From Deltaproteobacteria bacterium (GTDB taxonomy: Bacteria; Desulfobacterota; JADFXK01): a stretch of 8,380 nucleotides of DNA. The translations under genes were made by a program, and so were the position numbers. The notes below the pieces were generated by a model that worked only from the letters and a program-made list of their open reading frames with translations, ran no database searches and was not told the DNA's origin. Below are positions 1 through 6,209 of this stretch, piece after piece; the stretch's first letter is position 1; each line of letters opens with the position of its first letter. The DNA lies in the NCBI GenBank assembly GCA_015233285.1, contig JADFYA010000146.1:1-8380 (forward strand). The letters run 5' to 3'.

Positions 1-27
1 ATGGTTTTTATATAGTCGCCACCCCTA

Positions 28-71
28 CCCAGGGCGTTGCCCTGGGCTAACCTAGAGCGCCCTTTCAGGGC
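28..71. repeat. Paired-hairpin intergenic element (REP-like)
   Basis: Two adjacent perfect hairpins are visible. The first has stem CCCAGGGC (28-35), loop GTT and GCCCTGGG (39-46). The second has stem GCCCT (59-63), loop TTC and AGGGC (67-71). No T-run follows on either strand, so this is not a classic intrinsic terminator. It lies about 100 bp past the stop of the minus-strand GGDEF gene. Paired GC-rich hairpins of this form are common as dispersed intergenic elements in environmental bacteria. Whether it is repeated elsewhere in this genome cannot be seen here. Confidence 0.5.
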
Positions 72-146
72 TTCATCGGAATTAACCATTTATTAGAATA
101 GGATCCGATGACCCTACCCTTAAGTCAGTGACATTGACCAGCAACC

Positions 147-167
147 TGTAACCGGCAACCAGTTACA
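147..167. repeat. Short inverted repeat next to the GGDEF gene stop
   Basis: TGTAAC (147-152) and GTTACA (162-167) form a 6-bp stem with a 9-nt loop, directly after the minus-strand stop codon at 168-170. A role as a weak transcription end or 3' mRNA-stabilising hairpin is possible. There is no U-tract, so this is a structural observation only. Confidence 0.25.
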
Positions 168-4202: not shown

Positions 4203-5621
4203 ATGTCCAAAAAGAAGATTATGAATTATTCTATCCCGTTGTTGCTTCTAATTCTTTTTGCCATTTCCTTCACGGTGGTTACCCAGGCTCCAGCCGTGAT
4301 AGACCGTCAAAACCAGCCAACCAACAGGACTGCCACCACTCCCTGCTCCGCCACCCTTTCCTCCGACCAGAAACTGCAAATTCCCTATGTCTTGGTCAAT
4401 GGTCAGCCCTATTCGGTCAGCTTTGGTCTCAGCGCCGACGCCAGTGGACAAATTCAGATCGCTTTACTTAGTTGTACCCAAAACACGACTCCTTACTCTT
4501 GCCCACCCGGTTCGTTTGATTCTAAAAACATGGTCTTATATGTGCCGGACATTGTGTATAATGCCGTTTCCTATTGGGCGATTTTTAAATACCAGCCCAC
4601 TTCCGATGGTCAGATCTGGTTTAAATTGTCTGCCGCCTCACCCAATGGCCCCGGTTCACAGGTGCTGGCCAGGGTGGAAGTGCCGGGGTATCTTCAGGAC
4701 TTGAACCTGCCGGTATACGCCGACCTGGAAGACGGCGCCGGGACCTACTACGCTCTCGTCGTTGCCCCCCAAGCTCTGTTGGAACTTACCGGAGTCACAT
4801 TTAAAGTGATAGACCAATTTACCCCTGGGACCAACTACATGCTGGGTCAGGAGGACACACCGGGGGCGCGCCAACAGGCGGCGAAGATAACCAAGGTTCT
4901 GTACGATGACGGCCGCAATATCATGGTCCGGTATAACTCCGGCCTGGCCGATACCCTGGGTGATCTTGGTTTCGAAATGGACATATTGAACCAGACCCCC
5001 ATGGTCCTTTTTTCAACTGGAACTGAAGATGCAGTAAAGGACGTTAGATCCGACAAGAATCCCACGGTGGATCAACTGATCGGGAAGATAACCGAAGCCG
5101 ACGTCAAGACCTTTATCTCCAACTTAAGCGGCGAATCCACAGTCACCGTCAACGGGGCTGTGACCACTATAGACGGCCGCCAAACCGAATCCACCAACTT
5201 GAAACTCGCCTCCCAATACGTCCTGGACCAGCTTAAGGCCATGAACCTGACCGCTTCTTTCGATGACTGGACTGCTACCGATGAAAATGGGGCGGTATTA
5301 AAGGACCGTAATGTGATTGGGGAAATAACCGGGAAAACAAAACCCGGCGAAATCATCATCCTCGTTGCCCACCTGGATAGCTTACCCTCCAAGGGCCGGG
5401 CGCCTGGGGCGGACGACGACGCCAGCGGTTGCGCGGCTTTGCTGGCCGGGGCCAAGGCCATGAGTAGTTACAGCTTCCAGCGGACCATCCGGTTCGTTTT
5501 TTCGACCGGTGAGGAAGACGGCATTTTCGGAAGCAAAGATTACGCCAATAAGGCCAAAGCGAAAATGCCGTCTTCCTCACCGGTCGAAAAAACGAACCGG
5601 ATGGTCCGCTGGAAGCTGTAA
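4203..5621 (+). CDS. Secreted M28-family zinc peptidase, N-terminal part (truncated by an inverted-repeat arm)
   Basis: The ATG follows AAGGAG by 6 bp. The 472-residue product starts with a Sec-type signal peptide: basic 'MSKKKIM', then a hydrophobic stretch to about 27, with likely cleavage near 'TQA'. A beta-rich region fills about 40-290. The M28 (PF04389) metallopeptidase domain starts near 330: H390 in 'LVAHLDS', the bridging Asp around D405 in 'PGADDDASG', and catalytic/zinc Glu pair E437-E438 in 'STGEEDGIFGS'. M28 enzymes are di-zinc exopeptidases, here expected outside the cytoplasm. Sense ends at about residue 453. The last ~19 residues are translated from the right arm of a 92-bp inverted repeat and end at TAA 5619-5621. 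The conserved segment with the 'LDMI' zinc-ligand Asp is therefore missing. The domain resumes in the same frame after 5651. As written the gene is broken; an assembly error could also explain it. Confidence 0.85.
   Translation: MSKKKIMNYSIPLLLLILFAISFTVVTQAPAVIDRQNQPTNRTATTPCSATLSSDQKLQIPYVLVNGQPYSVSFGLSADASGQIQIALLSCTQNTTPYSCPPGSFDSKNMVLYVPDIVYNAVSYWAIFKYQPTSDGQIWFKLSAASPNGPGSQVLARVEVPGYLQDLNLPVYADLEDGAGTYYALVVAPQALLELTGVTFKVIDQFTPGTNYMLGQEDTPGARQQAAKITKVLYDDGRNIMVRYNSGLADTLGDLGFEMDILNQTPMVLFSTGTEDAVKDVRSDKNPTVDQLIGKITEADVKTFISNLSGESTVTVNGAVTTIDGRQTESTNLKLASQYVLDQLKAMNLTASFDDWTATDENGAVLKDRNVIGEITGKTKPGEIIILVAHLDSLPSKGRAPGADDDASGCAALLAGAKAMSSYSFQRTIRFVFSTGEEDGIFGSKDYANKAKAKMPSSSPVEKTNRMVRWKL
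5438..5529. repeat. Left arm of a perfect 92-bp inverted repeat
   Basis: This arm is genuine M28 coding sequence, from about 'ALLAGAKAM' through 'STGEEDGIF'. Its reverse complement occurs without a mismatch at 5560-5651 (positions sum to 11089). Pairing fails immediately outside, at 5437/5652 and 5530/5559. The total structure is 214 bp with a 30-bp loop that also reads as normal protein ('GSKDYANKA'). Confidence 0.97.
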
Positions 5622-5651
5622 CTACTCATGGCCTTGGCCCCGGCCAGCAAA
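5560..5651. repeat. Right arm of the 92-bp inverted repeat (inverted copy, likely the intruder)
   Basis: A perfect reverse complement of 5438-5529. Read in the peptidase frame it gives non-homologous sequence ('MPSSSPVEKTNRMVRWKL') and a TAA. It therefore looks like the copied arm, and the left arm the original. It occupies the place where M28 peptidases carry the strand with the third-position zinc ligand. No terminal repeats, transposase or target duplication flank it. Confidence 0.97.
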
Positions 5652-5975
5652 AATACGTTGTACAATAACGACCTGAATCTCGCCCAAGTATATCTTAATG
5701 TGGTCAAAGACTATGGGCTGACCGGGACTATCACGCCGGTTCACGTGCCGGACAATGATCGGTTCAGCGATCAATCTTCCTTCTGGGATAAAGGTTACGC
5801 CGCGATTTGGATAATTGAGGATGACTCTGCCGGTGGGCCACCACCACAACAACCTTGGAATCCCTACTACCATTCAACCGATGATAAATTGGCGAACATG
5901 GATATGACGTACTGCACGGCCATGGTCAAGGCCGCCGCGGGCACTGCCGCAACCCTGGCCGTCCCTAGCCCATGA
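5628..5975 (+). pseudogene. C-terminal part of the M28 peptidase
   Basis: Past the inverted-repeat arm (from 5652) the peptidase resumes in the same frame as 4203. It reads 'NTLYNNDLNLAQVYLNVV', 'FSDQSSFWDKGYAAIWIIED', and 'NPYYHSTDDKLANMDMTY', ending 'AAGTAATLAVPSP' at TGA 5975. The His of 'YYHSTDD' (codon 5871-5873) is the last M28 zinc ligand. The nominal ATG at 5628 lies inside the repeat arm, is not preceded by a ribosome-binding site, and its first eight residues come from the inverted copy. I do not think it is an independent gene. With the upstream part it would make about 590 residues, a normal size for a secreted M28 enzyme with an N-terminal extension. Confidence 0.75.
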
Positions 5976-6209
5976 GTTTCATCTCAACTAGATGACAAAA
6001 TTGATAATGTCCAAAAATGATCATGTTTCCTTACTTTGTCCGGAATGACGGTGTTCCCCGGCGCCTGGAAACGGCAAAGGGGCGTCGTCATTTCAAGCGA
6101 AACGAAAAATCTTAACGTCGCACCTTTATCTCAGCATTGTGGTCTCAAGACGGGCTGCCTGCGGCAGTCATCCCAGGCCGGACCAGACCACGAGGAAGAT
6201 CAGACCTAG
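5976..6209. other. Intergenic region with degenerate repeat-like sequence
   Basis: The 234 bp between peptidase and permease hold no gene. AATGACG (6044-6050) and CGTCATT (6086-6092) are inverted to each other. The stretch from 6086 resembles a worn copy of the dispersed intergenic sequence 'GTCATTTCGAGCGAAGCGAG', seen in many environmental genomes. A short hairpin CTGCC-TGC-GGCAG lies at 6155-6167. GAGGAAG (6192-6198) is the probable ribosome-binding site of the permease gene, rather far from its ATG (11 bp). Confidence 0.35.

What the first reader, a model, noticed from the sequence alone, without database searches (positions are those of the whole stretch)
5438..5651. Perfect 92-bp inverted repeat with 30-bp loop inside a peptidase gene
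Bases 5438-5529 and 5560-5651 are exact reverse complements with no mismatch, and homology stops abruptly at both ends. A structure this long inside coding DNA cannot be chance. The left arm and loop read as normal M28 peptidase, while the right arm reads as nonsense, so it is a recent inverted copy. Two explanations fit: a template-switch (quasi-palindrome/hairpin) event during replication, or a chimera from whole-genome amplification or assembly. Long palindromes are cleaved by SbcCD-type nucleases, which argues either for recency or for an artefact. If real and present in only part of the population, it would be a natural example of palindrome-mediated gene inactivation.
Basis: partly seen in the sequence, partly recalled or inferred. 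Interest (0 to 1): 0.75.

Follow-up and report, generated by a model that had tools for sequence, protein, structure and literature searches.

The report
Two-jump copying error inside peptidase gene
A stretch of a bacterial peptidase gene has been overwritten by a 92-base backwards copy of the stretch just before it, the mark of a copying enzyme that jumped strands and jumped back; this probably happened in the sequencing library, though a fresh mutation in the living cell is not excluded.

Summary
The three close relatives found have the M28 gene uninterrupted. Against the nearest (L001), the right arm is not an insertion: it replaces 104 native nt with 92, removes the NLDM segment and brings an in-frame TAA. 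The joins carry 2-nt (CG) and 7-nt (CAGCAAA) microhomology, so the structure is best read as an out-and-back template switch on the strain's own DNA. Where it happened is open. The rest of the gene shows no other lesion and no relaxed selection, and the ORF that starts in the right arm was found in this contig only. In 1.284 Mb sampled from the relatives' assemblies, the one comparable palindrome (48-nt arms, 15-nt loop) lies in the last 222 nt of a contig and jumps again to sequence 3.6 kb away, which looks like a chimera. I lean to an in-vitro chimera (0.57) over a very recent in-vivo mutation (0.40). The SbcCD argument is weak: recombination-proficient E. coli tolerates a similar interrupted palindrome. 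No functional element is indicated. Raw reads would settle it; none were available.

The parts
4203..5559 (+). native 5' part of an M28-type metallopeptidase gene; the frame reads on into the right arm to a TAA at 5619-5621 (472-aa ORF)
   Evidence: Pfam PF04389 positions 1-81 of 193; best relative L001 95% identical in the best segment
5438..5529 (+). left arm, the source of the copy (native coding sequence)
   Evidence: 3, 10 and 6 mismatches of 92 to L001, L002, L003
5530..5559 (+). 30-nt loop, native coding sequence
5560..5651 (-). right arm: exact reverse-complement copy of the left arm, in place of 104 native nt (L001 2554-2657)
5560..5561 (+). 2-nt microhomology (CG) at the first join
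   Evidence: with L001 as proxy for the sequence before the event
5645..5651 (+). 7-nt microhomology (CAGCAAA) at the second join; its reverse complement is at 5438-5444
   Evidence: same proxy; L002 and L003 differ within these 7 nt
5619..5621 (+). in-frame TAA created by the inverted copy
5652..5975 (+). native 3' part of the peptidase gene, still open and in the original frame
   Evidence: the 115-aa ORF 5628-5975 matches Pfam PF04389 positions 113-190 of 193 at 19.8 bits, just under the curated 21.3

Best explanation
The structure is the product of one out-and-back template switch on the strain's own DNA. A polymerase copying the peptidase gene left its template, copied 92 nt of the opposite strand close by, and returned to the original strand, skipping 104 nt of native sequence that were thereby lost. 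The 7-nt CAGCAAA/TTTGCTG match is the more likely priming site of the first jump and the 2-nt CG match that of the return (order inferred). It has no function of its own; if the joined molecule exists in cells it truncates the peptidase. I judge it more likely that the switch was made in vitro (whole-genome amplification or library synthesis, then assembled) than in the cell. Shown: the copy, the replacement, the junctions, the intact relatives. Inferred: the polymerase step, its order and its venue.
For: Perfect copy with abrupt ends. 3 of 3 relatives found have the gene uninterrupted. Replacement 104 to 92 nt with 2- and 7-nt microhomology; 7 nt or more at a random join has a chance of about 5e-4 by a simple count. 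The 3' part is still open, and substitutions on the window's branch are 24 synonymous: 8 non-synonymous against 19: 6 on L001's branch, so no relaxed selection is seen. A search of 5.8 billion clustered proteins with the 115-aa ORF that starts in the right arm gave one protein, in an 8380-nt contig, i.e. the window itself. In 100 stretches (1,284,081 bases) of three relatives' assemblies there is 1 perfect inverted repeat with arms of 40 nt or more and a loop of 100 or less: L044 13027-13137, 48-nt arms, loop 15, ending 111 nt before the contig end; the last 115 nt of that contig are identical to a place 3.6 kb away in the same contig, joined over a 4-nt match. phi29 chimeras: 406 of 475 inverted, most joins with 2-21 nt of complementarity (PMC1855051, passages); overlap peak 6 nt, distance peak 250-300 nt, two or more parts (PMC4595205, passages).
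Against: No read data; the window's source, library type and assembler are unknown, so the in-vitro venue is inferred. The palindrome is interior to an 8.4-kb contig with native sequence on both sides, so a chimera would have had to win over the native path. The comparison chimera comes from another assembly and is itself inferred. A study of MDA on low-biomass metagenomes found few chimeras (under 0.07% of unmapped reads, most of them inverted), while quoting much higher rates from others (PMC10945365, passages). An in-vivo switch would leave the same junctions. The 7-nt match rests on L001 alone.
Confidence: 0.57

Rival explanations
1. The same out-and-back template switch happened in the living cell during replication or break repair, very recently, and knocked out the peptidase in this strain.
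For: The same structural evidence. Template switching that creates perfect hairpins in one event is documented (PMC8794818, abstract and passages; largest pattern quoted there 59 bp). Recombination-proficient E. coli tolerates a 111/24/111 palindrome (PMC4245961, passages). Perfect inverted repeats with arms of hundreds of bp occur, rarely, in complete bacterial genomes (PMC13155455, abstract and passages, spacers up to 8 bp only). An assembler is unlikely to invent joins that share 2 and 7 nt, so some molecule carried them (inference).
Against: No second lesion and no relaxed selection; found once only. No other interior palindrome with arms of 40 nt or more and loop of 100 or less in the 1.284 Mb sampled from relatives. 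True long coding palindromes broke automatic short-read assemblies in another study (PMC6649704, section 6 read), yet this contig runs through; the window's read type is unknown. A distant SbcD-like phosphoesterase gene next to an SMC-like ATPase gene is present in one relative, G002, though their action on this palindrome is unknown.
Confidence: 0.4
2. Pure assembly error: the assembler turned a graph edge around with no chimeric molecule behind it.
For: The relatives' assemblies are fragmentary (contigs of 3-6 kb at this locus), so low-coverage assembly trouble is plausible; the window's own assembly is unknown.
Against: The joins share only 2 and 7 nt, much less than a usual k-mer overlap; one relative's contig starts with a 127-nt exact repeat of its own interior, which suggests k=127 there (one case).
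Confidence: 0.02
3. A functional inverted repeat (invertible switch, mobile-element end or regulatory hairpin).
For: Perfect arms.
Against: The arms are peptidase coding sequence and occur once, not as a repeat, at this locus in 3 of 3 relatives; no Rfam match there at gathering scores. Of the 7 ORFs given to Pfam, 2 are the M28 pieces and the other 5 are an ABC ATPase, UPF0014, an amidohydrolase, a GGDEF response regulator and DUF2442; the other listed ORFs were not scanned, so a recombinase is not formally excluded.
Confidence: 0.01

Closest known systems
phi29 MDA inverted chimeras (PMC1855051, PMC4595205; passages)
   Same: Inverted join of nearby sequence, short complementarity at the joins, loss of intervening sequence, two or more parts possible
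   Different: The described typical case joins two segments; here there are two joins 92 nt apart, and whether this sample was amplified is unknown
Replication template-switch mutations with four switch points (PMC8794818; abstract and passages)
   Same: Out-and-back copying of a nearby strand makes a perfect stem in one event
   Different: 92 nt is longer than the largest pattern quoted in that study (59 bp), and here a protein gene is broken
Quasipalindrome-associated template-switch mutations in E. coli (PMC7202029; search listing only)
   Same: Template switch at inverted repeats in bacteria
   Different: Those arise at existing imperfect inverted repeats; here no perfect inverted repeat over 12 nt is left in the window once the right arm is left out (imperfect ones not tested in the reconstructed native state)
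Perfect coding palindromes of nematomorph mitochondria (PMC6649704; passages and section 6)
   Same: Long perfect inverted repeats inside protein-coding genes
   Different: There both arms encode conserved protein; here one arm is nonsense with a stop

Membership tests
Out-and-back template-switch event | Segment equals the reverse complement of nearby sequence of the same molecule | tested here: met
   92 of 92, while the left arm differs from L001 at 3 of 92
Out-and-back template-switch event | Native sequence continues on both sides, with replacement or gain in between | tested here: met
   104 nt of L001 replaced by 92 nt
Out-and-back template-switch event | Microhomology at the switch points | tested here: met
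   2 nt and 7 nt against L001; the 7-nt match is not kept in L002 and L003; 2 nt alone is within chance (0.19)
MDA or library chimera | Present only in amplified or library molecules, with the native allele in other reads | not testable with these tools
   no reads available; no genome held for the window
MDA or library chimera | Similar chimeras in comparable assemblies | tested here: inconclusive
   1 case in 1.284 Mb, at a contig end; another data set than the window's, and its chimeric nature is inferred
In-vivo mutation established in a strain | Same allele in independent records | tested here: inconclusive
   not found: one record for the right-arm ORF; junctions in 0 viral contigs; metagenome contigs could not be scanned, so absence there is not shown
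Old pseudogene | Further lesions or relaxed selection | tested here: not met
   24:8 against 19:6 over 557 codons; 3' part still open

The most novel reading that the evidence does not exclude
A natural bacterial population carries a very fresh in-vivo two-jump template switch that in one step built a palindrome with 92-bp arms and deleted a conserved segment of a peptidase, caught before any secondary decay.
Probability: 0.4. Interest if true: 0.4.

Novelty: new member of a known kind. Interest (0 to 1): 0.2.

Why it matters
If real, it is a clean natural example of one replication error making a long palindrome and a null allele at once. If an artefact, as I lean, it suggests that multi-jump inverted chimeras can survive into contig interiors, where they look like pseudogenes and truncated proteins in databases.

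Tried and rejected
Looked for the window's genome: none held. Looked for the palindrome allele elsewhere: one record, the window's own contig, for the right-arm ORF; the truncated 472-aa protein is not listed on its own among the 120 of 152 hits shown, and could be one of the 4 members of cluster P0001; left-join and right-join patterns in 0 viral contigs; no megablast match in plasmids. Looked by script for other template-switch footprints between the window and the three relatives (exact reverse-complement stretches of 12 nt or more within 250 nt covering 3 or more differences): only the 92-nt event, apart from L003 candidates that I put down to its 74-base run of N. A first count of inverted repeats in relatives was dominated by runs of N and was redone without N. 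Tried to argue from absence of SbcCD: not supported. SbcD-model matches were below the curated cut-off in 3 of 3 genomes (controls over it in 8 of 14), SbcC-model matches below it in 3 of 3 (controls over it in only 1 of 14); in G002 a phosphoesterase gene is directly followed by an SMC-like ATPase gene, while the neighbouring ORF in G001 and the G003 locus were not scanned. Family- and class-level searches around G001 reached 3 and 1 genomes. A finished-genome control in E. coli K-12 was not obtained. The survey of perfect inverted repeats in 118,019 genomes (PMC13155455, abstract and passages) used spacers up to 8 bp and gives no rate for 30-nt loops. Paper searches on the source of the nDJH assemblies and on palindromic chimeras in metagenome assemblies listed nothing on point.

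Full report
What is there. Bases 5438-5529 and 5560-5651 are exact reverse complements, 92 nt with a 30-nt loop. Complementarity stops at once outside. In 100 Markov-1 resamples of the window the longest perfect inverted repeat was 13 nt, and without the right arm the window's own longest is 12 nt. It is not chance.

Context. The gene 4203-5975 is an M28-type peptidase split by the event into a 472-aa ORF and a 115-aa ORF in the same frame. Pfam M28 positions 1-81 match upstream (81.8 bits) and 113-190 downstream (19.8 bits, just under the curated 21.3), so about 30 profile positions are lost. In the relatives the lost segment contains NLDM; that this Asp is a metal ligand is recalled from studied M28 enzymes and was not tested.

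Relatives. One genome scan gave three loci, all from Deltaproteobacteria MAGs: L001 (95% protein identity in the best segment), L002 (88%), L003 (86%). All three read through without the palindrome, with ORFs of 594, 593 and 593 aa. With L001 as proxy, 104 native nt (2554-2657) are replaced by the 92-nt right arm, net -12 and in frame, and the arm brings a TAA at 5619-5621. The left arm differs from L001 at 3 of 92 positions while the two arms are identical, so the copy was made from this strain's own sequence.

Junctions. The first join shares CG (2 nt) with the native continuation, which is within chance (0.19); the second shares CAGCAAA (7 nt), chance about 5e-4, both by the simple count. 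L002 and L003 differ within those 7 nt, so that value depends on L001 as the nearest relative. The pattern is that of primed polymerase switching rather than random end joining (inference).

Age. With L002 and L003 as outgroups and 557 codons compared, the window's branch has 24 synonymous and 8 non-synonymous changes, L001's 19 and 6; 30 differences could not be polarised. There is no relaxed selection and no second lesion in the 3' part. The event is very young or never existed in the cell.

Recurrence. The search with the ORF that begins in the right arm returned one protein, in a contig of 8380 nt, which is the window itself. Neither junction is in viral contigs.

Base rate in relatives. 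In 100 stretches of G001 (384,693 bases), G002 (281,912) and G003 (617,476) there was one perfect inverted repeat with arms of 40 nt or more and loop of 100 or less. It is L044 13027-13137 (G003:C586 33027-33137 of 33,248), arms 48 nt, loop 15, abrupt ends. The last 115 nt of that contig, of which the first 4 (GTGG) are also the arm's end, are identical to 29502-29616 of the same contig. G002 has the gene start without the copy; G001 gave no match. I read this as the same kind of event plus one more jump at a contig end, probably a chimera; that too is inferred. The sample holds ten other perfect inverted repeats of 20 nt or more with loops up to 500, none meeting both limits; the longest (L079, 46-nt arms, loop 157) is an inverted pair of the dispersed Acido-Lenti-1 element.

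Venue. phi29 chimeras are mostly inverted (406 of 475), join nearby sequence and use 2-21 nt of complementarity (PMC1855051, passages), with overlaps peaking at 6 nt and distances at 250-300 nt (PMC4595205, passages). The 7-nt join here spans about 220 nt of native sequence, close to that peak; the other join (2 nt, 30 nt apart) is not. Inverted-repeat chimeric reads also arise in sonicated libraries (PMC10908179, abstract and passages). Against a frequent artefact, an MDA study of low-biomass metagenomes found few chimeras (PMC10945365, passages). In favour of biology, template switching creates perfect hairpins in one event (PMC8794818, abstract and passages), and E. coli with recombination tolerates a 246-bp palindrome with 111-bp arms and a 24-bp centre (PMC4245961, passages), so instability is no strong argument against reality. 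Weighing these I give 0.57 to an in-vitro chimera and 0.40 to an in-vivo event; these are judgements, not computed odds.

Verdict.

Noticed in passing
window 1-160, core 28-72 (+): The contig starts in a dispersed repeat whose core is Rfam RF01687 Acido-Lenti-1 (44.7 bits). The relatives have many copies: 141, 25 and 26 matches at E up to 0.001 in G001, G002, G003 (150 candidates scored in each, so lower bounds; not all over the curated cut-off), and matches in 0 of 14 control genomes. Many lie as inverted pairs about 200 nt apart. The 2010 paper lists the motif for Acidobacteria and Lentisphaerae (PMC2864571, one table passage); these relatives are labelled Deltaproteobacteria. Copy number and pairing look more like a mobile or MITE-like element than an ordinary sRNA gene (inference).
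   Followed up: partly
window about 6087-6140: A second short dispersed repeat in the intergenic region: in the capped list, 12 matches in G002, 2 in G003 and 1 in G001, about 40-60 nt each.
   Followed up: no
L044 12850-13248 (G003:C586 contig end): Contig end made of a native gene start, an inverted 48-nt copy and a 115-nt tail identical to a place 3.6 kb away: a likely chimera in a public MAG.
   Followed up: yes
L021 1351-3302 (G002:C27): A calcineurin-like phosphoesterase gene directly followed by an AAA_27 (SMC-like) ATPase gene, a candidate distant SbcCD-like pair.
   Followed up: partly
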